From: Clostridium manihotivorum
GTDB lineage: Bacteria; Bacillota; Clostridia; Clostridiales; Clostridiaceae
Reading direction: 5' to 3'
Assembly (NCBI RefSeq): GCF_004015185.1
Contig: NZ_CP025746.1
Location: forward strand, 124,001 to 188,000
DNA length: 64,000 nt
Each line of letters begins with the position of its first letter. The first letter of the stretch is position 1. A model generated the notes under the pieces. It ran no database searches, was not told the DNA's origin, and saw only the letters and a program-made list of their open reading frames with translations. Shown here piece by piece: positions 9,314 through 39,054 of the stretch. A program made the position numbers and the translations under genes.

Positions 9314-9334
9314 TAAAAATCTATCTATAATAAG

Positions 9335-9377
9335 AAAAAGATTCACTGAAAAGGCTTTTTTCAGTGAATCTTTTTTG
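9335..9377. terminator. Terminator of the ABC exporter operon
   Basis: AAAGATTCACTGAAAA pairs with TTTTCAGTGAATCTTT and is followed by a T run. A/T runs on both sides make it bidirectional, serving the convergent CorC-like gene too. Confidence 0.88.
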
Positions 9378-9447
9378 CACATCAGCCTTTCAAATTATAT
9401 ATGATAAAGACCTTGCAGGCGCTATAAATTTTCTTTTTTACATCTAT

Positions 9448-10698: not shown

Positions 10699-10770
10699 AA
10701 AGCATCACTCTCCCATATAGTACAAAAAATGCCATACACTTTATTATATCATATTAGGGGTTATTTTATT

Positions 10771-10842
10771 AAAGATGTAACCCTCATATCCTAAATCTAT
10801 TTTCACAGCCCTCTGATTTCTGTGAGGATAACTTAAAATATA
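10771..10842 (+). repeat. Dispersed intergenic repeat C, copy 1
   Basis: AAAGATGTAA, then AAATCTATTTT and a CCTCTG..TTCTG.GAG core, matches 43561-43640 in the same orientation at about 70% of positions over the first 65 bases. The core CACAG(CCCTCTGATTT)CTGTG can fold as a short hairpin. It lies upstream of the CorC-like gene but is read on the opposite strand. Confidence 0.5.
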
Positions 10843-10906
10843 GATTCTACTAAGAAGTTATATCTTTGTACTAATCCCTATTGAATATAAAGCTATGGCA
10901 AATTAA

Positions 10907-11962: not shown

Positions 11963-12062
11963 ACGCATCCCTCGCTTCCAATTATATGTATGTACATAAA
12001 TTAAATATAAACCATATATATATTATTTGAAACATAAATATTACTAAAAAATCAACTTTCTA

Positions 12063-12115
12063 TTGATTTATATTTTATTTGTAATATAATAAAAATATAA
12101 ATGAACGTTGTTCAT
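12063..12115 (+). promoter_or_regulatory. Promoter and TetR operator of the tetR-mfs pair
   Basis: A -35 like TTGATT (12063-12068), 16 nt, then TATAAT (12085-12090). The perfect inverted repeat ATGAAC-GTT-GTTCAT lies at 12101-12115, over the expected transcription start. The same half-sites recur before the MFS gene, which points to self-repression by the TetR protein. Confidence 0.8.
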
Positions 12116-12136
12116 AAAAACAAGGAGTCCATATTT

Positions 12137-12667
12137 ATGCCAAAAATACTATTAGATGTTAGAGATAAACTGATTGAAGAAGGAAGAACTGTTCTTTCAA
12201 ATGCTGGTTATGAAGCCTTTAATATAAGAGATATAGCTAAATCCTGTAATATAGGAATTGGAACCTTCTATAATTACTTTTCTAATAAAGATTCTTTAGT
12301 TATACAAATAATATCTAGCGATTGGGATAAGGTTATTGAACTTTCTGAGAACCTAGTATATAAAGATATGCATATAAAAGATAAATTATTTCTTATCTAT
12401 TCTGAAATAGATAAATTCTTATCTACATATATTGATACTTTTATGATGATGGCGGCTGCTGGTTCTAAAGATTGTCCTAAGTACTCTATATATGATCCTA
12501 TGTATGAAGCTCTAGAAAAAACAATTAATATTTCTAAAGAAAAAGGGGAAATTAATCCTATAATAGACGCAAAAAAATTATCAAAGATTATAGTTAATTC
12601 TCTAACCTTCGCAATAAAACAGGAAGATATAACTTTTGATGACATATACTATTCATTAAACATGTAA
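12137..12667 (+). CDS. TetR-family transcriptional regulator
   Basis: A 176-residue repressor with an N-terminal HTH (FNIRDIAKSCNIGIGTFYNYFSNKDSL, about residues 30-55), the hallmark of TetR proteins, and a helical ligand domain. ATG 12137 follows AAGGAG at 12122-12127; the ATG at 12101 is part of the operator and is not used. It is immediately upstream of, and likely controls, the MFS exporter. The effector is unknown, probably a drug or hydrophobic compound. Confidence 0.93.
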   Translation: MPKILLDVRDKLIEEGRTVLSNAGYEAFNIRDIAKSCNIGIGTFYNYFSNKDSLVIQIISSDWDKVIELSENLVYKDMHIKDKLFLIYSEIDKFLSTYIDTFMMMAAAGSKDCPKYSIYDPMYEALEKTINISKEKGEINPIIDAKKLSKIIVNSLTFAIKQEDITFDDIYYSLNM

Positions 12668-12716
12668 CTATTATCATTTAGTTGTAAACAGCTAAATGAT
12701 TTATTTTAAATTTTAA

Positions 12717-12731
12717 ATGAACAAAGTTCAG
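12717..12731 (+). promoter_or_regulatory. Second TetR operator, in front of the MFS gene
   Basis: TGAAC-AAA-GTTCA is a perfect inverted repeat using the same arms as the operator at 12101-12115. It sits 14 bp before the MFS start codon, next to the AGAAAGGAG ribosome site. Confidence 0.75.
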
Positions 12732-12744
12732 AAAGGAGATTTTT

Positions 12745-14475: not shown

Positions 14476-14483
14476 GTTATTAA

Positions 14484-16396
14484 ATCGAGTAGGAGCTGAA
14501 TAATTATTTTATTCAGCGTCCTCTCACACCACCGTGCATACCGGTCTGGTACACGGCGGTTCTTTAAGTTGAATGAATTTTAATATATTGATGCGTTAGG
14601 CTTTTTAAGCCTAAGTCCGAGAAGAATTTATTTGTAAGAGTTGTGTTTAATATTGCACTATTTGCTACTCGCCAGTATCCTTTGCGGGTATTGGCAAACT
14701 TTATAGCTTCGTAGTGTTCAAGTCCCAGCTTCTTAAGGTTTTTATATCTAGTTCTAACTTTCTTCCACTGTTTCCATATACACATTCTTAATCTTTTCCT
14801 TATCCAAATATCTAAATGCTCCACTATTCCTTTGCATTTGGCTATTCCATAATAGTTAATCCAACCAATATTAATTTGGTTCAATTTTTCTATTCTTTGT
14901 TCCAAAGTTATCGGTTTTGATCTAGATAGGACTTCTCTGATTTTATCTTTGTATCTCTTTAATGATTGCTTTGATATAGATGAGTATGCTTTACCAAACA
15001 TTAGGTTTAGCGTGAATCCTAGAAACTTTCTCTTCCAAGGTCTATCTACTGCACTTTTATCTCTGTTCACCTTCAATTTGAGTTTGCCTTCAATGAAATT
15101 TGTTATATTTTCCATTACTCTTTTCCCAGCTCTCTCACTTTTAACATAGATATTACAGTCGTCCGCGTAGCGACAAAATTTATGACCTCTCATTTCTAAC
15201 TCTTTATCTAGTTCATCTAGCATTATGTTAGATAATAGTGGACTCAGCGGTCCTCCTTGTGGGGTTCCTTCTTCATTTCTGACCACTACACCATTTATCA
15301 TTATTCCTGACTGAAGATATTTCCTTATTAGGGATAATACCCTCTTATCCTTAATGCTTCTTGATAATTTATGCATTAAGATATCATGGTTAACCTTATC
15401 AAAGAATTTCTCTAAATCCATATCAACAACCCACCTATAGCCATCATTGATATACTGTTCTGCTTTCTTAATTGCATCTTTAGCTCCTCTTTGAGGGGCG
15501 GAAGCCAAAGCTACTTTCAGAGAATCTTCTATCATAAATACTATTTAATTCTTGAGCAATAGCTTGTTGGATAAGTCTATCCAAAACTGTAGGTATACCT
15601 AAGAGCCTAGTTCCACCATTAGGTTTTGGAATTTCTACTCTTCTAACTGGCATTGGTCTATACTCACCATTAAGAATACTTTCTCTAATAGATATCCAGT
15701 TTGTTTTCAAAAATTGTTTAAGTTTATAAACTGTCATTCCGTCCACGCCGTGGCTACCTTTATTAGAAATTACTCTTTTAAGAGCCAAGTTCATATTATC
15801 CTTGGATAATATCCTTTCTAGTGAGCCATATTCAAATCCACTGATTTTCTCCTTTGGAGTTGCCGAGAATTCTCTATGCACTCTTTGCTTATCTTCGAGT
15901 TCCACTCTATCTTGGGCACTAGAGCCTAAATATTTAGTTTTCTGCAATCTTTGAGTATTCTGCGAAACTTTCAAACTTGAAAAACCTCCTTAAAGTTCAG
16001 TCCTTCATCCGCTATCGCGATTAGCGGAGTTACTATGACTTCTGCTGACTTCTGATAGTTCAGTTACATATCGCTATGTAGGTTACCGCTTAGAAATTCA
16101 TCTTTGTTAGCGATGTATCTATCAGACCTCCCCAGGTAAGAACAACAACCTTCATCTCATATATCTGCTACATTTACTCCTAGGAATTGGGATAGTGTAG
16201 GACTTCGTTTTGTTTAGCAAACTCGTCCGTCCCTAGTAAGCCTTATATGTAGTTCGTGTCCCTCAGACCGAGACTTTGCCTTAGGCTTCCTTCAGATTCC
16301 ACCTCACGATGGACACCCTTGCCCTTAGCTAGTGGTTCCCACTACCAAGCCCACAGCGGACTTTCACCGCCAAGTTGTTGCCCATGCTGGGCACAC
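14484..16396 (-). mobile_element. Group IIC intron
   Basis: Read on the minus strand, the element begins GTGTGCCCAGCATGGGC at 16396. It has the conserved domain I segments (CAAGGGTGTCC, GGAATCTGAAGGAAGC) and ends with a group IIC-type domain V (14522-14560; ACCGCCG..GCACGGTGGTGTGAGAGG), a domain VI hairpin (14496-14516) and the 3' end CTCCTACTCGAT. These strings closely resemble the Oceanobacillus group IIC intron. The 5' splice site lies exactly after a terminator T-run, the known insertion preference of this class. The 3' boundary is given to within a few bases. Confidence 0.9.
14564..15974 (-). pseudogene. ltrA: Group II intron reverse transcriptase/maturase, frameshifted
   Basis: Two reading frames together give one intron-encoded protein. 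15974-15480 encodes RT0-RT2 up to ESSFGFRP. 15535-14564 encodes RGAKDAI, then YRWVVDMDLEKFFD, GTPQGGPLSPLLSN, the catalytic YADD, and the maturase X domain (WINYYGIAK...). Four bases instead of three separate the FRP codons from the RGA codons (about 15497-15505), so one extra base breaks the frame. There is no C-terminal HNH endonuclease, as usual for IIC proteins. The copy is probably immobile unless supplied with maturase in trans. Confidence 0.9.
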
Positions 16397-16433
16397 GAAA
16401 AAGGGGTACTGAAGAGAGTTTCTTCAGTACCCC
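16397..16433 (-). terminator. Terminator of the Ser/Thr-rich protein gene; intron insertion site
   Basis: A 13-bp perfect stem GGGGTACTGAAGA / TCTTCAGTACCCC with a 5-nt loop is followed on the minus strand by TTTTTC, where the intron begins. It starts three bases after the stop codon of the upstream gene. Confidence 0.95.
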
Positions 16434-27732: not shown

Positions 27733-29256
27733 CTAGTATTCGCTAAGTGTATTAAAAGGAGCTGCTGGTAGTCCCTTTGAATTAAATAGATTAATCTCTA
27801 CAAAGTTTTTCCACCCATAGGCAACTCCTATAGGATTGTCTATCTTATCATTATAAACTACAACCTTATCTTCAACTATCTCAGCTTTTGCAGCAACCCA
27901 CACTCTATCTTCCCCACAAATTTCAAACCCCTTCAGTTTTTCATCATACTTTACAACTAGATCCCCAGCTTCAACATGATCAAAACTTATTTCTATCTTG
28001 TTGTCCTTGATATTATAAGATTTATATATAGGAGAGTATCCATTTATGTTTTCCTTATATACATCCTGTCTTGCTACTAAGGACAACCTTTCACCTACCG
28101 GCTTTTTATTCTTAGGATGAACATCTTCTTTTTCTCCACAATCCACTGTTACTACTATAGAAGTATTTTTTACATTTTTATAAGTATATAGCTGAGCATC
28201 TCTTAAAATCTGCCAAGTATCAACCTTTTCTTCATTAAACATAGGTAATTGGACAAACGCAAAAGGAAGCTCAGGATTTTCTAAATCCTCTCTCCAGCTT
28301 CTTATTAATGAACTAAAAAGCTTCTTATATAAGTTTGCGTGTGAAGAATCCTGTTCCCCTTGATACCAGATGACACCTCTTGCTGTAAATGGAGTTATCT
28401 TTCTAAACTTTGTATAGTAAAGCCCACTAGGTCTTAGATATGACTTTCTACCAAACGGAGGCTCCCAAGGAGCAAAGCCTATATCAGCCTGCAACTGCTG
28501 AATAGATCATTCAGGATAATCTTTCATATACTGTTGCTCTTTTAATGCATAATCCTCTTGAGCTTTATGAAACTCATGGATTAATTTTTCCTCTTCTTCC
28601 TCTGTAAGATTATCTATAACCCTTTTGTAGGGATCTAGGTATGCTTCAGATAATTCTTTATCTTCAATTAGATACTTTTCATTCATCCAGCAAGAGGCAG
28701 AAGTTCCCCCTTTATTACAATTGATTATACCTATTGGAACTTTTAAGTCAGCATATAAGTTCTTAGCGAAGTAATAAGCAACTGCTGAATAATATCTTGA
28801 TGTATCTGGTGAAGATATACTCCAGCCATTATCAACAATTCCCTCAGGAATTATACATTTTTCATCTTCATAAGTTATATCCGGTACATTGTAATACCTT
28901 ATATCTGAACAATTAGAATTAGTAATTTCTTCTTCTGCACCTATAGAGTCCTTCAAGTTGAACTCCATATTTGATTGCCCCCCAGCAATCCAAACTTCAC
29001 CTACCAGAATATTTTTTAGTATAATTTCATGATCCTTTGATAAAACACTAAGTTCATAAGGCCCGCCTGTTTCAAGCTTATTAAAAATTAATCTAAACCT
29101 TCCGCCTTCAGTTATGGCCTTTACTTCTTGTCCACATAGTTTACCGAAAACCACTTCATTCTCATCAGCCTCACCCCAAATAACAACCTCAGAATTCCTC
29201 TGAAGGACCATATTGTCAGAAAAAATTGGAGCTAATTTTAATTTCAATACCATCAC
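27733..29256 (-). pseudogene. Sialate O-acetylesterase-like SGNH esterase, interrupted by in-frame TGA
   Basis: Two same-frame pieces make one roughly 500-residue esterase. 29256-28510 carries the catalytic Ser block (IAGGQSNMEF), PIGIINCNKGGTSASCW and the N-terminal beta domain. 28506-27733 carries IWYQGEQDS and the Asp-His block DVHPKNKKPVGERL. A single TGA at 28507-28509 separates them, between DYPE and SIQQLQ; a TGG-to-TGA change would explain it. Neither piece has a complete triad. The family removes acetyl groups from sugars, here plausibly acetyl-mannan. The best-spaced start is TTG 29247 after AGAGG, since ATG 29253 is too close. Confidence 0.85.
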
Positions 29257-29570: not shown

Positions 29571-29589
29571 TGGTATCCCCAGTAGGAAT
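29571..29589. repeat. attL core: 19-bp copy of the tRNA-Arg 3' end
   Basis: TGGTATCCCCAGTAGGAAT is identical to 38980-38998, the CCA end and T-arm of tRNA-Arg, and no other tRNA sequence is here. This is the signature of site-specific integration into a tRNA 3' end. Confidence 0.93.
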
Positions 29590-29624
29590 TAAAATATGAA
29601 TTTATGAAGCTTGTCCTACTAATT

Positions 29625-29674
29625 AAAAACCCACTTTAAAGCCTTATTCCTAAAGGCTTTGAGTGGGTTTTGTT
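29625..29674. terminator. Bidirectional terminator at the left end of the element
   Basis: AAAACCCACTTTAAAGCC pairs with GGCTTTGAGTGGGTTTT, with T runs on both sides. It ends the capsid operon and insulates the element from the host locus. Confidence 0.92.
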
Positions 29675-29707
29675 TTAATCATAAAATTTAATTTTCAAAT
29701 CTGTTTA

Positions 29708-29734
29708 GCGACTTATTGTCGCCATGTTGTCGCC
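29708..29734. repeat. TTGTCGCC repeats, left end (candidate integrase arm sites)
   Basis: TTGTCGCC at 29716-29723 and 29727-29734 (11-bp period), with an inverted GCGAC at 29708. Related GTGTCGC and TTGTCGC sites lie at 38905-38923 beside attR, so both ends of the element carry the motif. Confidence 0.6.
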
Positions 29735-29735
29735 A

Positions 29736-30593
29736 CTAAACTTTAGGCTTTATTACTGAAAAAGCTTCATCTCTTAGTACTTGCGATGCAACTCTCATAG
29801 TAACTCTTAACCCCATAAGGTCTTCTTGTCCTAAATTAATACTTGTACCATCTTCTAATGTTAGTGTACTTTCTCTAAGTACCTCATATTGAATATCTTG
29901 TAATATACCAAGCCTTAGATAATTAAAATCTCCAGTAATTAAAGGTGTCTTTGTACTATCAAAATGTGTTGTGTATTCAACTGGTGTGGAATAGATATTA
30001 CTTACATCATTAACCAATTGAGTTCCCATAGTTGTTTTAAGATTTCTTAATTTTGTCTTTGTTTTTGGCGCTTGAATAAGTACAGTTGGTGTAAATCCAT
30101 ACTCTTCTACTTTTCCTAAAGTGTTAGATATGTCTGTCATTATATCATCTGTTTCGCTTACACCATTTGTTGTACCTATAGATAATAATGTCTTTGGAAA
30201 TGGATTTGAAGTATCTCCAGTTAATATAGTTCTATCAATTACACTATAAAAACTTTCTGCGATAGCATCTCTAAGATCTTCGAACAAACTTATTACTGGA
30301 TCTGAAAGAGCTTCTCTTGATGCAGTCATTATTATTGCTATTTTTTTAGCTTCTAATGTTACTGGAACTATTGAAGGTTTCCCAACCTTTATTTTTTCGC
30401 CTTCACCAACCCATGTAGCTCCTGGAACATTTATAACAACTGGTATCGTCTTTTTAGGTGTTGTCATAGGTTCAACTTTTGCATACTTCATACAAATTGA
30501 TCCTTGCATTATTTGTTGTACTATCTCATTACTTATTTCAGTGGGTATAACCCCATCTAATTGTTGACTTAAAATTAAATCTGTATCTGCCAT
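29736..30593 (-). CDS. HK97-fold major capsid protein
   Basis: 285 residues. Segments PTEISNEIVQQIMQGSICMKYAKVEPM, PGATWVGEGEKIKVGKPSI, KKIAIIMTASREALSDP, the domain MTDISNTLGKVEEYGFTPTVLIQ, and the C-terminal VTMRVASQVLRDEAFSVIKPK follow the usual order of phage major capsid proteins. Unlike HK97 it has no fused delta domain; a separate scaffold gene precedes it by 4 bp. It is the only shell protein of the element and is last in its operon, before a strong terminator. Confidence 0.92.
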   Translation of the reverse strand: MADTDLILSQQLDGVIPTEISNEIVQQIMQGSICMKYAKVEPMTTPKKTIPVVINVPGATWVGEGEKIKVGKPSIVPVTLEAKKIAIIMTASREALSDPVISLFEDLRDAIAESFYSVIDRTILTGDTSNPFPKTLLSIGTTNGVSETDDIMTDISNTLGKVEEYGFTPTVLIQAPKTKTKLRNLKTTMGTQLVNDVSNIYSTPVEYTTHFDSTKTPLITGDFNYLRLGILQDIQYEVLRESTLTLEDGTSINLGQEDLMGLRVTMRVASQVLRDEAFSVIKPKV

Positions 30594-30597
30594 ATAT

Positions 30598-31176
30598 TTA
30601 TCTTACTCCCTTTACTATACGCTCAAAGTCACTTATTTCTTTTCTACCGCTAATAGAAGAGCCTCCACCTGGAATATAAGAACCAAGTTTCATTCTATTT
30701 TCAACTTCTCCATTAACATATTGAACCATTAACCCTTTAAACGCTTCTATATTATTCATAGTTTCTTCTACATCTTTGCCCGCTAAATATTTAACCATTT
30801 CAACAGGTATATTTGATTTAACCAATAACTCTTGATATTGCATTTTTAATTCTAGCTGCCGCTTTTCTTCATTTGATTTTTCAAGAGCTTTATTCATTTC
30901 TTCAAGTTTTATTTCTGCTTCTGACTTTTGAGGATACCTTTTATCGATTTCCTCATTAATCAAATTTTCTAAGTTGTTAGTCTTCCACGACTCAATACTT
31001 TTATCAAGCCTTTTGCTAACAGTTTTATCTACAACGCTATCATAATAGCCTTTAATATCTAGATTATTTGTAATTGCATTTTGAAATTGTTCTAAGGTTA
31101 TTTCACCAACTGAATTAGTTTCCGTTGACTTTCCCTCTCCTTCAATTTCTAAATTTTGATCTTGTAAATTTTCCAT
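30598..31176 (-). CDS. Capsid scaffolding protein (DUF4355-like)
   Basis: 192 residues, acidic at the N-terminus, with a long central coiled coil (about residues 75-125; EIKLEEMNKALEKSNEEKRQLELKMQYQELL) and a Gly/Ser-rich tail. This composition and position, directly before the capsid gene, is typical of phage scaffolds that set shell size and are released before DNA entry. It would determine whether the satellite builds its own (possibly small) capsid. ATG 31176 follows GGGAG at about 10 nt. Confidence 0.85.
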   Translation of the reverse strand: MENLQDQNLEIEGEGKSTETNSVGEITLEQFQNAITNNLDIKGYYDSVVDKTVSKRLDKSIESWKTNNLENLINEEIDKRYPQKSEAEIKLEEMNKALEKSNEEKRQLELKMQYQELLVKSNIPVEMVKYLAGKDVEETMNNIEAFKGLMVQYVNGEVENRMKLGSYIPGGGSSISGRKEISDFERIVKGVR

Positions 31177-31224
31177 CTTTTGTTTACTCCCTTCACCATA
31201 GACTTATTACACCTATGACTTTTT

Positions 31225-31275
31225 AAAAATATTATAAAAATTGTGGAACTGGCCGACCGTGGTTTTACCTATTTC
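31225..31275 (-). promoter_or_regulatory. Possible activator-dependent promoter of the capsid operon
   Basis: On the minus strand, TATAAT lies at 31231-31236, about 55 bp before the scaffold start. No -35 hexamer is seen at the usual distance; instead a GC-rich stretch (ACGGTCGGCCAG, about 31249-31260) is present. This suggests a late promoter needing an activator from the element or from a helper phage. Confidence 0.4.
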
Positions 31276-31413
31276 TAGATTAGAAGACACCCCTCACTTA
31301 TGTATATTTATACTATATATTCTGTATATTATACATTTATATTCTATATAGGAATACCACTTCCGAATAACATTGGCTTAAACACTAGGTTAGTGTATAT
31401 CCATGTAATTTTA

Positions 31414-31439
31414 GGCGACAATACAAGCGACAACGCGAC
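31414..31439. repeat. Internal GGCGACAA repeats
   Basis: GGCGACAA (31414-31421), AGCGACAA (31426-31433) and GCGAC (31435-31439) are the reverse complement of the end motif TTGTCGCC. They lie in the noncoding centre, about 1.7 kb inside the left end. Confidence 0.55.
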
Positions 31440-31641
31440 TTGCAAGACTATTAATATACATTTATTATTCATTGTTGATTATCAGCCATATCACGCCTAT
31501 ATTATAGCACAAACCCAGTAATATAGCCACACTACACACTTTTTGCACTTTTTCGCATAGGTGTCGCCACCTGTCAAGGTCAGACTGTTAGCAATGTGAA
31601 TAAATATTCTTAACAGTTTAATAGTTTAGTTACAGTTAGGC

Positions 31642-31899
31642 AAACTATCCTAAGTAAGAAAACATGAGCTTTTACATGAAATCTAGGGATAGTTTAATAG
31701 TTTCATAGATGAAAACTATATATTTAATATTTTTAATGTGGTATATAGGTATATTTCTACCTTTTATACCTATATACTTGTATATATTTTTTTTACTAAT
31801 TTAAAAACTATCCCAACTATTACTGACTATCCCTAATATAGATGTATCAATACTTTAAACATAGGGATAGTTTAAAGATAACTCTCCTCAAACTATCCC
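31642..31899. other. Candidate replication origin with iterons around an AT-rich core
   Basis: Six copies of GGGATAGTTT or its complement occur: AAACTATCC 31642, GGGATAGTTT 31686, AAACTATCCC 31805, TGACTATCCC 31824, GGGATAGTTT 31864 and AAACTATCCC 31890. They flank an almost pure A/T stretch (about 31710-31800) between the capsid operon and the repressor. Two iteron clusters around an AT-rich core is the origin layout of satellite islands whose helicase binds the iterons. The whole 31177-32133 gap lacks a convincing gene. Confidence 0.65.
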
Positions 31900-32133
31900 T
31901 AAAATAAATAAATCAAGTGCTTATTATATAAAAGAAAAATCTACCTAGTAGAAAACTTTATAAATACATAGCTAATCACTTGGTAGAAAATTATATATTC
32001 AAAAATTTATATGACACCTTGACACTTTGTCTTATATTTGTCGAAAAATATTTTTTGATTATTACTGCGAAAAGTTCCGCAATGGTGGAAATAAAAAAAT
32101 CCCTTACTTTAGTAAAGGATCATAAATTAGCTT

Positions 32134-32643
32134 CTATTTATTTCTTGATTTAATTTCAGTAGTTTTTATTTTAAGCATATCATACATAAATCTAAATAGC
32201 TCATCTTGTTCAAAGCTAGAAAAGTCATTAAATTTATATCCAATATCTTTTTCAACAAGCTTATTAGATGCAAATTTATCAAAGTCATCTAATATAGTAT
32301 GCAATTCTTCTTTTATTCGTTTCTCCTTCTGTATTAATGATGGCTTCTTATGAAGTTTATCCAATGCATTTATAATTCCTTCGTCAGAATTATTAGCAAT
32401 CTCCACTTCTGAATCAACAAATTTATTTTGAATGTCAGACCCAATATCATCACCAATTATATCTGCCATTGGTATATCAAATTTTTCTGATATTTCATTT
32501 AATACATTTATTGGTGGTACTATATCGCCACTTTCATATCTTCTCACAGTTATTTCTTTTTTATTTATTTTTTCAGCAAATTGTCTTTGAGTTAATTTAT
32601 TATCTTTTCGTATCTTTTTTATATTATCTGAAATACTCACCAT
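32134..32643 (-). CDS. CI-like XRE repressor of the element
   Basis: 169 residues. The N-terminal HTH (LTQRQFAEKINKKEITVRRYESGDIVPPINVLNEISEKF, residues about 17-56) is a lambda-repressor-type fold. The C-terminal part is acidic and helical without a visible LexA-type Ser-Lys protease pair, so RecA-stimulated autocleavage is unlikely. Derepression by a helper protein, as in phage-inducible islands, would fit (inference). It is divergent from the Cro-like gene with shared operators between. Confidence 0.88.
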   Translation of the reverse strand: MVSISDNIKKIRKDNKLTQRQFAEKINKKEITVRRYESGDIVPPINVLNEISEKFDIPMADIIGDDIGSDIQNKFVDSEVEIANNSDEGIINALDKLHKKPSLIQKEKRIKEELHTILDDFDKFASNKLVEKDIGYKFNDFSSFEQDELFRFMYDMLKIKTTEIKSRNK

Positions 32644-32670
32644 TATTCACCTCAGCATTATAATATCACA

Positions 32671-32766
32671 ACCGTCATTAAAAATATATATTTTTGAATA
32701 ATATTATTGACATAGTCATTTATAATGACTATAATCAAAATATCAACAGTTACTTTAAATGACGGT
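32671..32766. promoter_or_regulatory. Lysogeny switch: strong promoter with three related operators
   Basis: TTGACA (32707-32712), 17 bp, TATAAT (32730-32735) drives the rightward operon. Between them lies the perfect palindrome TAGTCATTTATAATGACTA (32713-32731). Outer operators ACCGTCATT (32671-32679) and AATGACGGT (32758-32766) are inverted copies of each other and share the TCATT core. The repressor bound at the central palindrome would block polymerase directly. Confidence 0.88.
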
Positions 32767-32780
32767 GAGGTGAAATTAAT

Positions 32781-32981
32781 ATGGGAATTAATTTAAAAAT
32801 TGCTCGAATCAAAAAGGGCATTAAACAAATTGACCTAGCAAAAGAAATTCATGTTTCCCCAGCAACTTTAATTAAGTGGGAAAAAGGCATTGAATTTGAC
32901 AACATTAGACTTGGACAGATGAAGGCAATTGCAGCTGCTCTTAGCTCAACTGTAGAAGAACTTTTCTTATCTGAAAATTAG
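32781..32981 (+). CDS. Cro-like XRE regulator
   Basis: 66 residues, essentially only the HTH domain (LKIARIKKGIKQIDLAKEIHVSPATLIKWEKG...). It is the first gene of the rightward operon and lies directly behind the operator set, as Cro or activator proteins do. ATG 32781 follows GGTGAGGTGAAATTAAT. Confidence 0.9.
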   Translation: MGINLKIARIKKGIKQIDLAKEIHVSPATLIKWEKGIEFDNIRLGQMKAIAAALSSTVEELFLSEN

Positions 32982-33094
32982 TAAAGTGCTAATATGCAAA
33001 AATCATATCTATTAAATTCTAAAATAGACACTGCAGAGCAATGACAAAAATAAATCGCAATGATTTACAACAATAATTCAATGGAGTGATAAAT

Positions 33095-33355
33095 ATGAGC
33101 TACTCAAGGGAAGAAATGTTGAGAAACAATTATGAAACAGATAATGATTACATACTGGACGTATTGAAAGAAGCTGACGATAAAATTTTTTCTGATATGT
33201 ATGGAATGATTCCAGAAGGAAATCTCTTAGATTTATTCAGAAAATGGCTTTCAATTAGAAATAAAATTGAAGATATATATATTGAACAAGCCTATTCTAA
33301 CGGCTTTAATGCAGGTGCAGAATTAGCAAGAGTACAAAAAAGGAGGGGTCAATAA
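33095..33355 (+). CDS. Hypothetical small protein, 86 aa
   Basis: Charged helical protein (MSYSREEMLRNNYETDNDYILDVLKEADDKIFSDMYG...) with no recognised domain. ATG 33095 is 8 nt after GGAG; the in-frame GTG at 33086 is less well placed. Its stop overlaps the next start (TAATG), so the two are co-translated. Confidence 0.7.
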   Translation: MSYSREEMLRNNYETDNDYILDVLKEADDKIFSDMYGMIPEGNLLDLFRKWLSIRNKIEDIYIEQAYSNGFNAGAELARVQKRRGQ

Positions 33356-33759
33356 TGATTGATTCAGAATATATGAGAGCTTTTAATTTAGTAGAAAGTA
33401 CTTCAAAAACTCTTAATAAGATTTATACCCAGGTGAAAAATAATAGTTTTGAAGATATAAAAGCTTGTGAAGCTATGGAAAAGTTAATTCAAGACATTGA
33501 TATCTTTATGTGGAAGGTAAATCATTATTCAAAAAGTGCTAAGGAAGGTGTCTTAAAGCTAGGTAGTAATGATAGATATAGCATAAATGAAATTGAACTA
33601 ACTTGCGGCTATCCTTTAGAAGTTTATAACGCCGAATATGATCAGTGGGAAGCTGGTTGCGTAGAGCATAGTAATAATTTTGATGGATACTACTTTCAAA
33701 ATAATGATGGAAATAGCTTTGCATTAAGTAACGGTATGTATTGTAGAGTAAGAAAGTAA
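33355..33759 (+). CDS. DUF5348-like protein
   Basis: 134 residues. A helical N-terminal half is followed by a beta-rich C-terminal half: RYSINEIELTCGYPLEVYNAEYDQWEAGCVEHSNNFDGYYF, then a GNSFALSNGMYCRVR ending. This pattern fits the DUF5348 domain found in Firmicute mobile elements; function unknown. Start after AGGAGGGGTCAATA. Confidence 0.65.
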   Translation: MIDSEYMRAFNLVESTSKTLNKIYTQVKNNSFEDIKACEAMEKLIQDIDIFMWKVNHYSKSAKEGVLKLGSNDRYSINEIELTCGYPLEVYNAEYDQWEAGCVEHSNNFDGYYFQNNDGNSFALSNGMYCRVRK

Positions 33760-33805
33760 TAAATTTAATAAAAATAGTAGTTAAGAATAGGGGGATTTAT
33801 CTGTG

Positions 33806-34096
33806 ATGAAAGAAGAGCTTTTAGAGCTTATACAAGCGAGTCAAGAAACTGGAGTAACAGTTGAACAATTAAGAAAGGACATTGCTAGAGGACTGCTGAG
33901 GGGCAAAAAGATAGGACGTAAATTCTTAGTAGCAAGAAAAGACTTAAATTCATATTTAGGCCTAGAAAATAACAATGAAGTACTTGAACTTCAACTGGAA
34001 AATGAGAAATTAAGAAATAAGATTAAAGGATACGAAATGCAATTTGAAACCTTTAAAGGTCTATTAAAAACACTTGCTAATATTGCAGATGCTTAG
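33806..34096 (+). CDS. Excisionase-like HTH protein with coiled coil
   Basis: 96 residues. The N-terminal winged-HTH of the excisionase/MerR-like type (TGVTVEQLRKDIARGLLRGKKIGRKFLVARKDLNSYL) is followed by a leucine-rich helix (LELQLENEKLRNKIKGYEMQF). It may direct excision or control transcription. GTG 33803 is an alternative start; both follow AGGGGGATTTAT. Confidence 0.75.
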   Translation: MKEELLELIQASQETGVTVEQLRKDIARGLLRGKKIGRKFLVARKDLNSYLGLENNNEVLELQLENEKLRNKIKGYEMQFETFKGLLKTLANIADA

Positions 34097-34113
34097 TGAA
34101 GGAAGGTGTAAAG

Positions 34114-34215
34114 ATGAATTTTATTATACTAAAAAATTATGTAGAGCTATGTCAAAAGTTAAATAAACAACCGTCATTTAATGGACTAAAACACTTTAGA
34201 CTAGCCTTTAAGTAG
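34114..34215 (+). CDS. Small ORF, 33 aa, containing an operator-like sequence
   Basis: ATG 34114 follows GGAAGGTGTAAAG and the frame runs to TAG 34213-34215 (MNFIILKNYVELCQKLNKQ...). Bases 34170-34178 read ACCGTCATT, identical to the outer repressor operator at 32671. The ORF may be real, or just leader sequence to the primase gene. Low certainty. Confidence 0.35.
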   Translation: MNFIILKNYVELCQKLNKQPSFNGLKHFRLAFK

Positions 34216-34225
34216 GTGATTATAT

Positions 34226-36454
34226 TTGAGTATAAACATAAGAGAAATAGTTTCGTCTCATGAATTATTACCACTAGTTCCTCTAACTGGATATAGCAAA
34301 ACTCCATTTTGTCAATGGAGCAAAGAAGAAACTTGGATAAAAGATATTGATGGTTGTAATATAAAAAAATTCTCATGGATCAATAAAGAAGGAAATCAGA
34401 AGCAAGGTCAAGTTACTGGATTTTCACTTTTATTAGGTAAAAAAAGTAATATAACTGTCATTGATTTAGATATAGGCCATTCTGATACTGTTAACGGAGT
34501 TGAAAGTTTTAAAGAACTCATCAAAGACTTACCAAAAGAGGATATTGAAATAATTAATTCAACTTTTATAATTCAAAGCCCTAGAGGTGGTTATCATTTA
34601 TATTTTAAGTATGTTGAGGGAATAAAAGGTATTACAGATTATTTTAAGGGTGTTGGTAAACCTGGTATTGATGTAAGGACCGATGGCAACTTAGTTCCTA
34701 TTCCAGGCACTAAAATTCAACTTAACGGTCAAGGTAAAGCCTTAATTTATTCAATAAAAAATAATTCCGAAATTAAACCTATGCCTCAAAGTCTTATTAC
34801 CCTATTCAAACAGCATCAAGATAAGCCAGTAAAAAAAGCAAGCAATACAACAAAGATTTCCAACTCAAAATATTATAAAGTAGTTAATGAAGGAGAAGGA
34901 AGGGATAACACTTTACTGTCATGGTTAGGGTCACAAATTAAAAATAATCCTAATATGAGAAAAAAAGAGAATCTAATTCCATATGCTTTTATGTATAATC
35001 AATGTTACTTAAATCCACCATTAGAAACTGATATAGTTATTCAGAAAGTTGATAGTGTACTTAAGTATGCATTACCTCCTTATTGTGATGAAAAAGGAAA
35101 TGTTGACACTTGGTTATTAGTTCAATATGTAATGGAGAATAACCCCTGTTATGTTAAAGGAAATCTATGGTTCATTTACAATAAGCAAAAAGGGTGTTAT
35201 GACTTTTTAGAAACTGAAAAAGTTCAAAAATTATTTTTTCAATATGCAATAAATAGTAAAGATAAAACAGTAAATCATTCATTAGAATTTGCTAAAAAAA
35301 TCATGCTTACAAGTGAAGATGCACGAGAAACATTTGCTGAAAAAGATTATATTAATTGTTTAAATGGTGTAATTGATATAAAAAAAGACTCACTACTACC
35401 ACACGATCCAAAATACAAGTTATCAGTACAATTTAAAGCTAATTTAATAGAACATGACTTTAAAACAAAATTTAATAATTCTCATTTCAAAAGTTTTTTA
35501 GAAGGTATTTTAGATACTGAAAGTATTATAACCCTTCAAGAGTCATGGGGACTTATGCTATCACCACATGGAAAGGAAGTTCAGAATTGCTTTATTTATA
35601 AAGGGGAAGGCTCAAATGGAAAAGGAGCTCTGGAAGAAATACAGGAAGCTCTACTAGACGAAAAATATATTTGCAGTATAGGTTTAGGTGACTTTAATGG
35701 TGATTATGACATATCAAGTGCAGAAGGAAAACACGTTAATATAGTCCGCGATGATGAAACAGAAGGGAAAATGAACAGTAAGATATTTAAATCAATGGTG
35801 TGCTCTGAACCAGTAAAGGTAAATCGTAAGTTTGCCAATATAGTTAGAATGAGGTTTAATATAACTCATTTTTTTGGACTTAATCGTATGCCATATACCT
35901 CTGATAAATCTAAAGGCTTTTTCCGCAGACCTATAATAATACCTTTTAATCAATCTTTTGGGAACGAAGAAGAAGTAAGAAAAGGTATAGCAAATAAATT
36001 AAAAGATCCTCTCATATCAGATAAGATAATAAGAAATGAAATTGACATTGTTTTTACTTGGGCTTATGAGGGGTTAAAAAGGCTTAAAAAAAATAATTGG
36101 ACTGTAACGGTAAGTAATGCGGCTAAACAAGAACTCGAGAATTTTAAAGAAGAAGTTGATAGTGTCTATGCCTTTTATAAAAACTGTATTTCTCAAAGCA
36201 AAGGAAATCTTATAAATGCAACAGTACTCTATAACAGCTATAATGCTTTTTGCATTAAACAAAAAATAGTACCAGTAAGCCAGACTAACTTTGGCAGACA
36301 AATAAAAGGCTATGGTGTAAAAAAAGACAATGCAAATGGCAATAAGGTATACTATTTTGATATTTCTTTTAAAACTGAAAATACTGTTCAAGAAATACTA
36401 CCAAAAGAGCCTGTATATAATGGCGTAAAAGCTTGCAATGAAGTAAAAATTTAG
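34226..36454 (+). CDS. Primase-polymerase / SF3 helicase replication protein (P4/D5 type)
   Basis: 742 residues. The N-terminal AEP primase-polymerase domain (residues about 5-190) has VIDLDIG acidic residues, SPRGGYHLYFK and a GIDVRTDGNLVPIPGT segment. A D5_N-type linker is followed by the helicase: Walker A GEGSNGKGALEE (about residue 455), Walker B-like VNIVRDDETEG and sensor FFGLNRMPY. A winged-helix-like end (YNSYNAFCIKQKIVPVSQTNFGRQIK) may bind the iterons. It should initiate and unwind the element's DNA. TTG start 34226 after AGGTGATTATA. Confidence 0.92.
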   Translation: MSINIREIVSSHELLPLVPLTGYSKTPFCQWSKEETWIKDIDGCNIKKFSWINKEGNQKQGQVTGFSLLLGKKSNITVIDLDIGHSDTVNGVESFKELIKDLPKEDIEIINSTFIIQSPRGGYHLYFKYVEGIKGITDYFKGVGKPGIDVRTDGNLVPIPGTKIQLNGQGKALIYSIKNNSEIKPMPQSLITLFKQHQDKPVKKASNTTKISNSKYYKVVNEGEGRDNTLLSWLGSQIKNNPNMRKKENLIPYAFMYNQCYLNPPLETDIVIQKVDSVLKYALPPYCDEKGNVDTWLLVQYVMENNPCYVKGNLWFIYNKQKGCYDFLETEKVQKLFFQYAINSKDKTVNHSLEFAKKIMLTSEDARETFAEKDYINCLNGVIDIKKDSLLPHDPKYKLSVQFKANLIEHDFKTKFNNSHFKSFLEGILDTESIITLQESWGLMLSPHGKEVQNCFIYKGEGSNGKGALEEIQEALLDEKYICSIGLGDFNGDYDISSAEGKHVNIVRDDETEGKMNSKIFKSMVCSEPVKVNRKFANIVRMRFNITHFFGLNRMPYTSDKSKGFFRRPIIIPFNQSFGNEEEVRKGIANKLKDPLISDKIIRNEIDIVFTWAYEGLKRLKKNNWTVTVSNAAKQELENFKEEVDSVYAFYKNCISQSKGNLINATVLYNSYNAFCIKQKIVPVSQTNFGRQIKGYGVKKDNANGNKVYYFDISFKTENTVQEILPKEPVYNGVKACNEVKI

Positions 36455-36467
36455 AGGAGCAAAAACA

Positions 36468-36875
36468 ATGGCTAAATATATAAAATACAAAATAATAGAA
36501 GATAACTATAATACAAATTCACATTTTATCTATTGTGAGAATTCAAACATACCCTATATAACTATCAAAAGGCTAACCAAAAGATATTCCTATGTTGAAG
36601 TTGACATGGTTGCATTTAGGCCAAATCAAAAACTTATAAAAAAAATAATGTGTATATTAAACGATCATCACTCTATATATAAGGTACTTTCTGCACTAAA
36701 AATAATAAACAATCATGAATCCTTAGTTACTTCACTTGGAAGTGAAGTTTATGGGTTTAAAATCAAAAGACAATATGATGAACAATTTGCCTCAATATTA
36801 TTTGACTTATATTATGAAGCACTGGAAAAAGCAAAAGAAACATTAATGGAGGAATTAGAATGTATACAACAATAA
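36468..36875 (+). CDS. Hypothetical protein, 135 aa
   Basis: Basic N-terminal half with beta character (IKYKIIEDNYNTNSHFIYCENSN), helical C-terminal half. No recognised motif. It starts 13 bp after the primase stop with an AGGAGC site and overlaps the next gene by 16 bp, so it belongs to the replication operon. Confidence 0.7.
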   Translation: MAKYIKYKIIEDNYNTNSHFIYCENSNIPYITIKRLTKRYSYVEVDMVAFRPNQKLIKKIMCILNDHHSIYKVLSALKIINNHESLVTSLGSEVYGFKIKRQYDEQFASILFDLYYEALEKAKETLMEELECIQQ

Positions 36876-37096
36876 AAAACTTAACAGACCAGCTAAATGG
36901 ATTTACTCAAGAAGTAGAGCAAGTAGTAGCCGAAATAATAGAAAAAGGCTATAGCAAAAATCAAGCAATAGAAATAGTAAGAATAGGTGTTGAAGACATT
37001 AAAGTCGAAGTAATGCACCAAAGTAATCACTTAAAAGAATCTCAAAATGAATTACTAAATGATATTATTTCTATTTTACAGGGAGAGATTAATTAA
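36860..37096 (+). CDS. Hypothetical helical protein, 78 aa
   Basis: Predicted almost fully helical (LTDQLNGFTQEVEQVVAEIIEKGYSKNQAIEIVRIGVEDIKVEVM). It overlaps the upstream gene and abuts the downstream one. GGAGG lies 8 nt before ATG. Function unknown. Confidence 0.7.
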   Translation: MYTTIKNLTDQLNGFTQEVEQVVAEIIEKGYSKNQAIEIVRIGVEDIKVEVMHQSNHLKESQNELLNDIISILQGEIN

Positions 37097-37285
37097 ATGA
37101 ATAGAGACAATTTAAGAAAAGTTGAAGTATTTAATAATAAAGATCAAGTAGAATGTATCGCTTATTTCCATGAGTTTTATAAAGATACTCATTGGAATGG
37201 ACAAAGTACCCCTTGTGCACTTCTAGAGCTAGAAAATGGTGAAATGCTTATGGTGTCACTAGGTAAAATTAGATTTATAAGTTAG
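37097..37285 (+). CDS. Hypothetical protein, 62 aa
   Basis: Beta-rich small protein ending TPCALLELENGEMLMVSLGKIRFIS, reminiscent of small SH3-like folds. It starts directly at the stop of the preceding gene. No family recognised. Confidence 0.65.
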   Translation: MNRDNLRKVEVFNNKDQVECIAYFHEFYKDTHWNGQSTPCALLELENGEMLMVSLGKIRFIS

Positions 37286-37319
37286 TAGAATGCTTATAAA
37301 TCTTAACCAGGAGGAATTT

Positions 37320-37727
37320 ATGAATATAATTGATGAATACAGGTTTAATAAAGCTAGATGTGAAATTCTTAAATTAGATATAAAAACTTATGAAAATGAT
37401 TATGTCAATTTAGGAGATACAAAAGAACGTTTGGATACCTTAGAACGGCTAAACAGTGCCTATAAAGCTACACTAGATTTTATATCAGCATTTGAAAGTG
37501 CTTATGATCTGTTAACTGATGATGAAAAGTATTATATAGTTGAACATTATTACAATGAGAAACCACAAAAAGATATAGCACTTTATTACTTAAGCAATCC
37601 CGAAAAGATATTAAATATATCTCCATACAAAACACTAAGTGACAAAACATTAAATCTAATAACTATAATTAGATACTTAACTAACTTTAATAAAAGTATT
37701 ATGAAAAAATTAGAGAGGATCAAATAA
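37320..37727 (+). CDS. ArpU/sigma-region-4-like transcriptional regulator
   Basis: 135 residues from ATG 37320, which follows CCAGGAGGAATTT; the in-frame ATG 37290 has no site. The N-terminal half is helical. The C-terminal YDLLTDDEKYYIVEHYYNEKPQKDIALYYLSNPEKI...SDKTLNLI resembles the sigma-70 region 4-like HTH of phage ArpU/RinA late regulators, which switch on structural genes. Here it could activate the capsid operon or a helper promoter (inference). Confidence 0.6.
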   Translation: MNIIDEYRFNKARCEILKLDIKTYENDYVNLGDTKERLDTLERLNSAYKATLDFISAFESAYDLLTDDEKYYIVEHYYNEKPQKDIALYYLSNPEKILNISPYKTLSDKTLNLITIIRYLTNFNKSIMKKLERIK

Positions 37728-37728
37728 A

Positions 37729-38895
37729 ATGGCTTATTTCAAAAATAAAGGAACAAAAAACAAACCTAATTGGATAGTTGAAGGTAGTTTCGGAACTGGC
37801 AAAGATGGAAAAAGATTAAGAATAAAAAAAACTGGCTTCAGAACTCAGAAAGAAGCAGAAGCATACTTTAATGAATATGCTAACAGTGTAAATAAAGGAA
37901 CCATTAAGGTTGAAGCAAAAAATATTGTTTTTAGCGATTTTATAAATCAATGGTTTGATGAGCATAAAAGCAGAACTCTAAGTATTAATACCAGGACCAA
38001 TTATAAATCTAGGATAGAAACACATATACTTCCTTACTTAGGCCGATATAAGCTAACTGAAATTGACACAATGATAGTCCAAAACTTTTATAATCATCTT
38101 GTAGATGAAGGCTTAAAGCCATCGTCAGTAAAGAAAATTATAGAAATAATAAATAATTGCTTTAAGTATGCAATTAAAATGAGGCTGATAGCTATATCTC
38201 CTACAGATATTGAAAAATTGCCAGTAACAAAGCCTAGTATTGAATACTGGAGCAAAGAACAGGTCGATTTCTTTTTAAATCAGATAGAAGGAACATCTTT
38301 GTATACCCCAATATTTATAGATATACTTACAGGATTAAGAATTGCTGAATTATGTGGTCTTAGATGGCGTAATATCAACTTAGAAAAAGGAGAAATTGAA
38401 GTAAGTGGCCAAATTGTATTTGATAGAATTAATAAGGTGTTAATACCTACAGACATTCTAAAGACCGATACAAGCTACAGAATAATAACTATACCTAGAA
38501 TATTGGTTGAGCACCTAAGAGCCATTAAAGACGAATATACACCTAAAGAAAGTGATTTTGTTATTCAAAATAGATATGGTTTAATCTATAACCCCCGTAA
38601 CCTATCAATGAACTTTACACGTGCAGTGTCTCATTACAAGGAATCTATTGAAGATATTACAAAGAGAAAAGGACAAGCTCCTATTAATTATATGCAACTT
38701 CCACAAATAACCTTTCATGGATTAAGACATACTCACGCTACATTATTACTTCTAAATAATGAAAACATAAAAGTCATCTCTGAAAGGCTAGGACATAAGG
38801 ACATAGCTACAACATTAAACACCTATACCCATATCATGAAAGAATTTAAAGAAAGAACTGCTTCACTTTTAGATGAAATGTTTAAGAAGCCTTAA
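37729..38895 (+). CDS. int: Tyrosine recombinase integrase
   Basis: 388 residues. The N-terminal arm-binding domain (GSFGTGKDGKRLRIKKTGFRTQKEAEAYFNEY), the core-binding SAM-like domain (residues about 65-165) and the catalytic domain with Arg in GLRIAELCGLRW, HGLRHTHAT, GH in RLGHKD and Tyr in LNTYTHIM are all present. It lies 85 bp from attR at the end of the rightward operon, so its expression follows derepression. It catalyses integration into the tRNA-Arg 3' end. Confidence 0.96.
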   Translation: MAYFKNKGTKNKPNWIVEGSFGTGKDGKRLRIKKTGFRTQKEAEAYFNEYANSVNKGTIKVEAKNIVFSDFINQWFDEHKSRTLSINTRTNYKSRIETHILPYLGRYKLTEIDTMIVQNFYNHLVDEGLKPSSVKKIIEIINNCFKYAIKMRLIAISPTDIEKLPVTKPSIEYWSKEQVDFFLNQIEGTSLYTPIFIDILTGLRIAELCGLRWRNINLEKGEIEVSGQIVFDRINKVLIPTDILKTDTSYRIITIPRILVEHLRAIKDEYTPKESDFVIQNRYGLIYNPRNLSMNFTRAVSHYKESIEDITKRKGQAPINYMQLPQITFHGLRHTHATLLLLNNENIKVISERLGHKDIATTLNTYTHIMKEFKERTASLLDEMFKKP

Positions 38896-38904
38896 AGAAG
38901 TATT

Positions 38905-38923
38905 GTGTCGCTTAAATTGTCGC
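38905..38923. repeat. TTGTCGC-type repeats, right end
   Basis: GTGTCGC (38905-38911) and TTGTCGC (38917-38923) lie between the integrase stop and attR, matching the sites at the left end. They are candidate integrase arm sites. Confidence 0.55.
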
Positions 38924-38979
38924 ATTTCTAAAATCAAAAAAGCTACAAACAAGTTATACACTCATTTATAGCCTTTTTT

Positions 38980-38998
38980 TGGTATCCCCAGTAGGAAT
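38980..38998. repeat. attR core within tRNA-Arg
   Basis: A 19-bp copy identical to 29571-29589. It is both the tRNA 3' end and the crossover site. Confidence 0.93.
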
Positions 38999-39054
38999 CG
39001 AACCTACATCTGTCCCTTAGGAGGGGACTGTTCTATCCATTTAACTATGAGGAC
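38980..39054 (-). tRNA. tRNA-Arg (CCT anticodon), integration site
   Basis: The minus strand reads GTCCTCA (acceptor), D-arm TAGTTAAATGGATAGAACA, anticodon stem GTCCC/GGGAC with loop CTCCTAA (anticodon CCT), and T-arm GTAGGTTCGATTCCTAC, then TGGGGAT-A-CCA. It is complete despite carrying attR, because the element restores the 3' end. Its original terminator now lies at 29525-29560. Confidence 0.95.

What the first reader, a model, noticed from the sequence alone, without database searches (positions are those of the whole stretch)
29571..38998. Minimal phage satellite that encodes only a capsid shell and scaffold
Seen: exact 19-bp att repeats, an integrase, a CI/Cro-like switch, a primase-helicase, an iteron region, and just two morphogenesis genes, major capsid and scaffold, transcribed away from the rest. 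Known: Gram-positive phage-inducible islands steal helper virions, either by redirecting capsid size or, in capsid-forming islands, by supplying a larger set of head genes. Inference: this element would supply its own shell and scaffold, setting capsid volume for a roughly 9-kb genome, and borrow portal, terminase and tail from a helper. A two-gene shell-swap strategy would be a distinct and, to my knowledge, little-described design.
Basis: partly seen in the sequence, partly recalled or inferred. Interest (0 to 1): 0.85.

Follow-up and report, generated by a model that had tools for sequence, protein, structure and literature searches.

The report
Phage satellite bringing its own shell
A 9.4-kb mobile element sitting in a tRNA gene of a clostridium carries an integrase, a repressor switch and a replication primase but only two recognisable virus-particle genes, a capsid protein and its scaffold, so it would likely build its own small shell and borrow the portal, packaging motor and tail from another phage.

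Summary
A 9,409-bp element (29571-38979) lies between exact 19-bp att repeats at the 3' end of tRNA-Arg(CCT); four of four congeneric genomes have the uninterrupted empty site. It encodes an integrase, CI/Cro-type switch, excisionase-like protein, Prim-Pol/D5 primase-helicase and ArpU-like regulator. Its only recognised morphogenesis genes are an 80alpha-type scaffold and major capsid protein (MCP). No portal, terminase or tail gene was recognised; the portal test rings in 76 of 77 control phage/prophage loci. It is not a lone wreck. A complete 9,170-bp element with the same gene order sits in another clostridial tRNA-Arg. Two closed Terrisporobacter plasmids (9,281 and 8,218 bp) carry MCPs of the window's own clade behind a scaffold-like gene. 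Both head genes are under purifying selection. Of 119 tabulated scaffold relatives, 22 lie on longest contigs of 8.0-9.5 kb and none of 9.5-13 kb. I read it as a phage satellite that likely swaps in its own shell (perhaps T=3) and takes portal, motor and tail from a helper. A Ccm-like mixed shell is the main rival. No helper was found and I have no particle data. It differs from cf-PICIs, which bring portal and terminase, and from SaPIbov5 Ccm, which brings no scaffold.

The parts
29571..29589 (.). attL core, 19 bp
   Evidence: Exact repeat of 38980-38998; uninterrupted single site in 4 of 4 congeneric genomes
29705..29737 (.). GTCGC repeats just inside attL, possibly integrase arm sites (inferred)
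   Evidence: TTGTCGC: 5 of the window's 6 copies lie in the element, two here (family D3)
29736..30593 (-). major capsid protein, HK97 fold, 285 aa, no room for a delta domain
   Evidence: PF05065 E 2.7e-33 over residues 15-282, phrog_10; profile match to 80alpha/SaPI1 capsid protein 6b0x E 1.7e-78; AlphaFold2 model pLDDT 86, Foldseek top matches Muddy 8edu E 1.3e-22 and SaPI1 8vd4 E 1.4e-22; dN/dS 0.07-0.085
30598..31176 (-). capsid scaffolding protein, 192 aa
   Evidence: PF14265 (DUF4355, Gp46) E 1.2e-20, phrog_172; 80alpha scaffold 6b0x_a E 6.6e-5; C-terminal RIVK; dN/dS 0.20 and 0.24 against L139 and L140
31177..31572 (-). leader with likely late promoter (minus-strand TATAAT at 31501-31506) and TTGTCGC repeats; candidate packaging site (untested)
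   Evidence: Partly conserved with Clostridium sulfidigenes L139, ribosome-binding stretch also in L140 (read by eye, no statistic); repeats
31686..31899 (.). iteron-like ACTATCCC repeats in both orientations, likely replication origin (inferred)
   Evidence: 5 copies here of 7 in the window; 1.4 expected in the whole 64 kb, 0 of 100 shuffles reach 7
32134..32643 (-). CI-like repressor, 169 aa
   Evidence: HTH_3 E 4.5e-11
32781..32981 (+). Cro-like HTH protein, 66 aa
   Evidence: HTH_3 E 8e-11, phrog_3 E 1.4e-11; 82% identical to its counterpart in L142
33803..34096 (+). HTH_17/excisionase-like protein, 97 aa
   Evidence: phrog_1840 E 6e-4; counterpart in L142
34226..36454 (+). Prim-Pol/D5-type primase-helicase, 742 aa
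   Evidence: PF09250, PF08706, PF03288; 50-57% relatives in other clostridial genomes
37290..37727 (+). ArpU-like regulator, predicted late activator (the name ArpU for phrog_36 is recalled)
   Evidence: phrog_36 E 3.4e-7, 'transcriptional regulator'; counterparts in L142 and L207
37729..38895 (+). tyrosine integrase, 388 aa
   Evidence: PF00589 E 4.5e-22, PF14659; phrog_1 E 3e-73
38901..38930 (.). GTCGC repeats just inside attR, possibly integrase arm sites (inferred)
38980..38998 (.). attR core, 19 bp, inside the 3' end of tRNA-Arg(CCT) 38980-39054

Best explanation
The 9,409-bp element is a precisely integrated mobile element that likely moves as a phage satellite: it is predicted to build its own small capsid shell from its scaffold and major capsid protein and would borrow portal, terminase, connectors and tail from a helper phage. 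Shown: borders, empty site, gene content, absence of a recognisable portal or terminase, purifying selection on both head genes, and recurrence of the set in a second complete integrated element and, with a weaker scaffold match, in two closed plasmids. Inferred: a helper lifts CI repression; the excisionase-like protein and the integrase excise the element; the primase replicates it from the iteron region; the ArpU-like protein switches on the leftward scaffold-capsid operon; the satellite scaffold binds satellite MCP through its C-terminal RIVK hook, as the 80alpha scaffold does with RIIK, and closes a shell around the helper's portal; helper terminase fills it and helper tails attach. Shell volume then sets the genome size.
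For: Exact att and empty site. Gene set, all 13 ORFs scanned in both libraries. No portal or TerL in the element; the same references find a portal in 76 of 77 control phage/prophage loci with at least 5 kb upstream, many of them near-copies. L142: 19-bp att at 247/9417, tRNA-Arg(ACG), 9,170 bp, order INT-ArpU-PRIM-XIS-CRO / CI-SCAF-MCP. Closed plasmids pTPDSL2 9,281 bp and pTM2 8,218 bp with MCP at 52% and 49% and a scaffold-like gene directly upstream, no portal or TerL. MCP clade of 14 rows at 100/100 with a long stem, no verified phage inside. dN/dS 0.07-0.085 (MCP) and 0.20-0.27 (scaffold) over three pairs. Scaffold relatives: 22 of 119 tabulated longest contigs fall in 8.0-9.5 kb and none in 9.5-13 kb. 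The head pair belongs to the 80alpha capsid/scaffold family that SaPI1 remodels (PMC5644958 passages).
Against: No helper identified: the two resident prophages with HK97-type capsids share no DNA with the element above a control (10 hits against 10), and the own genome has no other match to the scaffold profile. No satellite TerS (only a chance-like HTH match of the Cro-like protein to a TerS family, E 3.4e-4) and no recognised packaging site. No particle or excision data. MCPs at 90% or more occur in 3 of 206 family genomes including the window's own; in an even draw of 391 class genomes no other match exceeded 228 bits against 495 for the window's own. Only 5 of the 16 tree rows labelled satellite were seen on complete elements. 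Scaling geometrically from 80alpha alone gives 12.3 kb for T=3, a poorer fit.
Confidence: 0.62

Rival explanations
1. Mixed shell: the satellite MCP and scaffold are likely co-assembled with the helper's capsid protein and force a smaller head, as SaPIbov5 Ccm does by occupying the pentamers.
For: Ccm is a satellite-borne HK97 capsid homologue that makes pentamers while helper protein makes hexamers; Ccm alone forms no shell (PMC8569155 passages). Satellites with the same primase carry an MCP (397-411 aa, with a delta-sized N-terminus) and no recognised scaffold (L207, L210).
Against: The window element brings a dedicated scaffold directly upstream of the MCP, and the pair persists in a second complete element; a scaffold points to autonomous shell assembly. 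No phage capsid whose context I saw is closer than about 40%.
Confidence: 0.22
2. Interference or defence cassette: MCP and scaffold likely act only to poison helper assembly, without building particles for the element.
For: Several known satellites reduce helper yield (PMC6893505 passages); no TerS or packaging site was recognised here.
Against: The narrow size range and closed plasmids of the same size suggest a packaging limit rather than pure interference.
Confidence: 0.08
3. Decayed prophage: a larger phage lost portal, terminase and tail and left this segment.
For: Scaffold followed by MCP is the normal phage order, as in IME197.
Against: Exact att and clean empty site; no broken ORF noticed in the element; purifying selection; the same set in a second bounded element and a similar one in closed plasmids; MCP clade separate from the phage rows.
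Confidence: 0.04
4. Reduced cf-PICI: the element descends from a capsid-forming PICI that shed portal and terminase, making it a deletion derivative rather than a separate design.
For: The same primase family sits in full cf-PICI-like elements (L206, L208 with portal, MCP and TerL by Pfam) and in L143 with MCP, TerS and TerL.
Against: The portal-carrying relatives use an MCP of 402-417 aa with a delta-sized N-terminus, and no scaffold match was seen in them. Exchange of head cassettes fits better.
Confidence: 0.04

Closest known systems
SaPIbov5 Ccm-type capsid redirection (Staphylococcus aureus PICI)
   Same: Satellite-borne HK97 capsid homologue expected to yield a smaller head; works beside a helper phage
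   Different: Ccm carries a cleaved delta domain, has no separate scaffold and needs helper capsid protein (PMC8569155 passages); here the MCP has no delta domain and comes with its own scaffold
SaPI1 CpmA/CpmB with helper 80alpha
   Same: Same capsid/scaffold protein family; the scaffold's C-terminal R-I-V-K resembles the RIIK of SP and CpmB (PMC5644958 passages)
   Different: SaPI1 brings a competing internal scaffold and uses the helper's capsid protein; this element brings a capsid protein too
Capsid-forming PICIs (cf-PICI)
   Same: Satellite supplies its own major capsid protein
   Different: cf-PICIs also encode protease, portal, connectors, TerS, TerL and HNH (definition as given in PMC10690885 passages); none of these was recognised here
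MulchRoom/MiniFlayer satellites of Streptomyces phages
   Same: Satellite-encoded capsid and scaffold
   Different: They also carry terminase, portal and head-tail adapter and lack obvious replicases (PMC10690885 passages)
PmCI172 and EcCICFT073 (Gram-negative PICIs)
   Same: PICIs with a capsid-like gene of unsettled role (PMC6893505 passages)
   Different: The passages seen mention no scaffold partner; other hosts. Not compared by sequence

Membership tests
Phage-inducible chromosomal island (PICI), general | Integrase with specific att site in the chromosome | tested here: met
   19-bp att at tRNA-Arg(CCT), empty site in 4 of 4 congeners
Phage-inducible chromosomal island (PICI), general | Divergent repressor switch and primase/replication module with origin | tested here: met
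   CI/Cro pair, Prim-Pol/D5 protein, ACTATCCC repeats; origin function inferred
Phage-inducible chromosomal island (PICI), general | Induction and packaging by a helper phage | not testable with these tools
   No helper found; needs experiment
Phage-inducible chromosomal island (PICI), general | Own TerS or other packaging redirection gene (frequent, not universal; recalled) | tested here: not met
   No convincing terminase match among 13 ORFs in Pfam or PHROGs; one HTH-type match of the Cro-like protein to a TerS family at E 3.4e-4, far below its regulator matches
Capsid-forming PICI (cf-PICI) | Major capsid protein | tested here: met
Capsid-forming PICI (cf-PICI) | Portal and large terminase | tested here: not met
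   13 ORFs in Pfam/PHROGs; reference search with control 76 of 77 for portal but only 49 of 77 for TerL
Capsid-forming PICI (cf-PICI) | Protease, head-tail connectors, HNH endonuclease | tested here: not met
   No match in Pfam/PHROGs (same calls); no control of their own
SaPIbov5 Ccm type | Satellite-borne HK97 capsid homologue | tested here: met
SaPIbov5 Ccm type | Delta-domain capsid protein without separate scaffold | tested here: not met
   The capsid match spans residues 15-282 of 285, leaving no delta domain, and a DUF4355 scaffold lies beside it
SaPIbov5 Ccm type | Mixed capsid with helper capsid protein | not testable with these tools
   needs particle analysis
PICMI | No genes for capsid remodelling | tested here: not met
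   Capsid and scaffold present; definition from the start of the abstract of PMC10803314 (search listing)
Prophage or prophage remnant | Portal, terminase, tail or their remains | tested here: not met

The most novel reading that the evidence does not exclude
A clostridial satellite lineage, integrated or as free 8-9.5 kb plasmids, carries a private capsid protein plus scaffold that self-assemble an unusually small tailed-phage-type shell (T=3, about 9-10 kb) and hijacks only the helper's portal vertex, motor and tail: a two-gene shell swap in which the helper's portal accepts a foreign head.
Probability: 0.35. Interest if true: 0.88.

Novelty: new variant of a known kind. Interest (0 to 1): 0.72.

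Why it matters
If true, capsid shell and portal vertex are separable modules in nature: a satellite could bring the shell and scaffold and plug them onto another phage's portal, motor and tail. It gives a natural test of what sets capsid size, since scaffold, MCP and genome size can be compared across elements of 8-9.5 kb. It also offers an identity for closed small plasmids with a phage capsid gene that are typed non-mobilizable, and perhaps for some of the 107 small terminally redundant gut sequences reported to encode an HK97 capsid (PMC8530359 passages; that link is my inference and untested).

Tried and rejected
Ordinary prophage remnant: rejected on borders, empty site, selection and recurrence. 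Membership in cf-PICI: rejected because portal and terminase are missing. A resident helper: local blastn with word 7 of the element against both resident prophage regions with a second PF05065 capsid gave 10 hits at E 0.5 or less, as did an equally long control stretch of the window, so no shared packaging site was seen; prophages without PF05065 were not looked for. EfCIV583 as a precedent with capsid genes (my recollection): contradicted by PMC6893505, which says it has no recognisable capsid or scaffold genes. IMG/VR scans: with two MCPs the best relatives were at 40% and 37%, with the window scaffold none, with the scaffold alignment 33% at best; lists capped at 80 in two of the four scans. 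The DNA of the 8-9.5 kb metagenome contigs could not be fetched. The 762-aa and 785-aa ORFs beyond the MCP in L139 and L140 looked like possible element genes but are a chemotaxis receptor and a helicase, unrelated to each other; I take them as lying beyond the element. Papers: passages only or outline with abstract; search listings. The listings and passages seen from these nine searches of one open-licence library showed no description of a scaffold-plus-capsid-only satellite or of these Terrisporobacter plasmids as satellites. The cf-PICI discovery paper itself was not read. After the filing check I validated the labels of the portal, terminase and capsid references: the portal and capsid labels held; the L141 large-terminase label rests on a weak match (E 6e-4).
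Full report
Observation. The element runs from 29571 to 38979 (9,409 bp), bounded by exact 19-bp repeats; the right copy is the 3' end of tRNA-Arg(CCT). The four other genomes of the genus held by the tool show the core uninterrupted in the 4.5-kb stretches read. In G002 the left flank (90% over 1,502 bp) and right flank (95% over 1,521 bp) meet exactly at it; in the other three the left match is 65-68 bp and also abuts it. This is an intact integration, not an eroded region. Element GC is 29.6% against 31.9% for the rest of the window.

Gene content. Leftward: MCP (PF05065), scaffold (PF14265, the Gp46 family) and a CI-like repressor. Rightward: Cro-like, an 89-aa ORF with no confident family, a DUF5348 protein, an excisionase-like HTH, a Prim-Pol/D5 primase-helicase, small ORFs, an ArpU-like regulator (phrog_36) and a tyrosine integrase. 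All 13 ORFs that I took as genes were scanned in Pfam and in PHROGs; no portal, terminase, connector, tail or lysis gene was recognised, apart from one HTH-type match of the Cro-like protein to a TerS family at E 3.4e-4, far below its regulator matches. As a control, portal and TerL references were run over 97 phage/prophage loci with a related MCP; 20 with less than 5 kb upstream were set aside, and of the other 77, 76 gave a portal and 49 a TerL. Many of these loci are near-copies and one reference portal comes from L141, itself among the 77, so the control is weaker than its number; TerL references are only moderately sensitive. The window element, L133, L134, L139, L140 and L142 gave neither; L139 and L140 are cut by contig ends.

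The head pair. The MCP profile's best solved match is the 80alpha/SaPI1 capsid protein (6b0x, E 1.7e-78); the scaffold profile's only match under 0.01 is the 80alpha scaffold (E 6.6e-5). The AlphaFold2 model (pLDDT 86, pTM 0.81) matches mycobacteriophage Muddy, SaPI1 and other HK97-fold capsids. The scaffold ends in SDFERIVKGVR. In 80alpha the C-terminal RIIK hook binds the capsid protein (PMC5644958 passages). A loose form of the motif ends 34 of the 120 listed scaffold proteins (the window's own included), against 0 of 6,000 random internal windows; the scaffolds of L142, L133 and L134 lack it, so it is not universal. dN/dS over three pairs is 0.07-0.085 for MCP and 0.20-0.27 for scaffold.

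Relatives. L142, a 9,996-bp contig of another clostridial species, holds a complete element between 19-bp repeats at 247 and 9417, the first inside tRNA-Arg(ACG): 9,170 bp, with integrase, ArpU-like, primase, excisionase-like and Cro on one strand and CI, scaffold and MCP on the other, the same order as the window. Two closed Terrisporobacter plasmids carry MCPs at 52% and 49%, with a scaffold-like gene directly upstream. In pTM2 (8,218 bp) that gene matches a scaffold family (phrog_172 E 1.2e-5; PF14265 E 3e-4, below its cut-off) and a VapE/primase gene follows; in pTPDSL2 (9,281 bp) the scaffold call is weak (PF14265 E 0.014, nothing in PHROGs) and the replication gene is primase-like at E 0.003. 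Neither has an annotated or matched integrase, portal or terminase. Clostridium sulfidigenes (L139) and a MAG (L140) have MCPs at 91% and 90% with scaffolds, cut by contig ends.

Spectrum. Elements with the same primase family show partial head sets in between: L143 (38-bp att, 8,877 bp) has MCP, TerS and TerL and a 108-aa ORF that reads to my eye like a shortened scaffold (no family match); L207 (33-bp att, 9,303 bp) and L210 (border weak) have an MCP but no recognised portal or terminase; L206 and L208 have portal, MCP and TerL like cf-PICIs; in L209 and L211 I recognised no capsid.

Tree. In a 40-row MCP tree the window falls in a 14-row clade at 100/100 on a long stem. L142 and L143 pair elsewhere (100/99). 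The drawn tree needs two changes of the satellite label, but its well-supported branches force only one, and 7% of bootstrap trees have one. My label 'satellite' rests on complete elements for 5 of 16 rows (window, pTPDSL2, pTM2, L142, L143) and on a cut contig for P0001; the rest were labelled by clade or contig length, and P0003 (46-kb contig) and P0004 (406-kb contig) were not seen in context. The five 'phage' rows with P numbers were likewise not seen in context.

Size. Of 119 scaffold relatives tabulated (120 listed, 167 found), 22 have a longest contig of 8.0-9.5 kb and none of 9.5-13 kb; no control family was tabulated. In the MCP table 8 of 27 rows lie between 8.3 and 9.9 kb. That is a prediction, not a result; dimers in a T=4 shell would also fit.

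Against. No helper was found. The own genome's two other PF05065 capsids are only remotely similar (one reaches E 7e-5 at 25% over 113 residues, the other no match) and those prophages share no DNA with the element above control. MCPs at 90% or more are rare in species-level genomes: 3 of 206 in the family, the window's own included; in an even draw of 391 of the class no other match exceeded 228 bits against 495. Scaffold matches are common (43 of 206, own included), but the five I annotated beyond the satellites (L141, L212-L215) sit in ordinary prophages with portals. No near DNA match exists among 50,697 phage records.

Verdict. A real, recurring, minimal satellite design. The most likely mechanism is a two-gene shell swap; a Ccm-like mixed shell is the main alternative. 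New variant of a known kind.

Noticed in passing
L143 (G191:C1:394501-414400), 7489-16403: Complete 8,877-bp element at tRNA-Arg(ACG) with integrase, CI, primase, a 108-aa ORF that reads like a short scaffold, MCP, TerS and TerL but no recognised portal: another partial head set.
   Followed up: partly
L207, 181-9516: Complete 9,303-bp element at a tRNA-Arg with an MCP of 411 aa and an ArpU-like gene but no recognised scaffold, portal or terminase.
   Followed up: partly
L211, 513-10780: 10,220-bp bounded element with the same primase family split into two ORFs and a DNA-invertase-like gene, no recognised capsid.
   Followed up: no
L133 and L134 (pTPDSL2, pTM2): Closed small plasmids typed non-mobilizable that carry phage capsid genes; possible plasmid-form satellites. 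The contig title of the same sequence in L038 states coverage 768; chromosome coverage not seen.
   Followed up: partly
window 29716, 29727, 31415, 31427, 38917: TTGTCGC repeats near both att ends and again upstream of the scaffold operon, as if the head cassette sat between att and a former arm region.
   Followed up: partly
window 27733-29256: Two adjacent minus-strand ORFs that look by eye like one esterase gene in two frames, just left of the element; no family search was run.
   Followed up: no
G000:C1:210353-211303: A second, distant primase-like gene in the host genome, possibly another small element.
   Followed up: no
L042 (Lacticaseibacillus porcinae): The one control locus of 77 with a related MCP and 5 kb upstream in which no portal was detected; TerS and tape-measure matches are present, so likely a divergent portal.
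   Followed up: no
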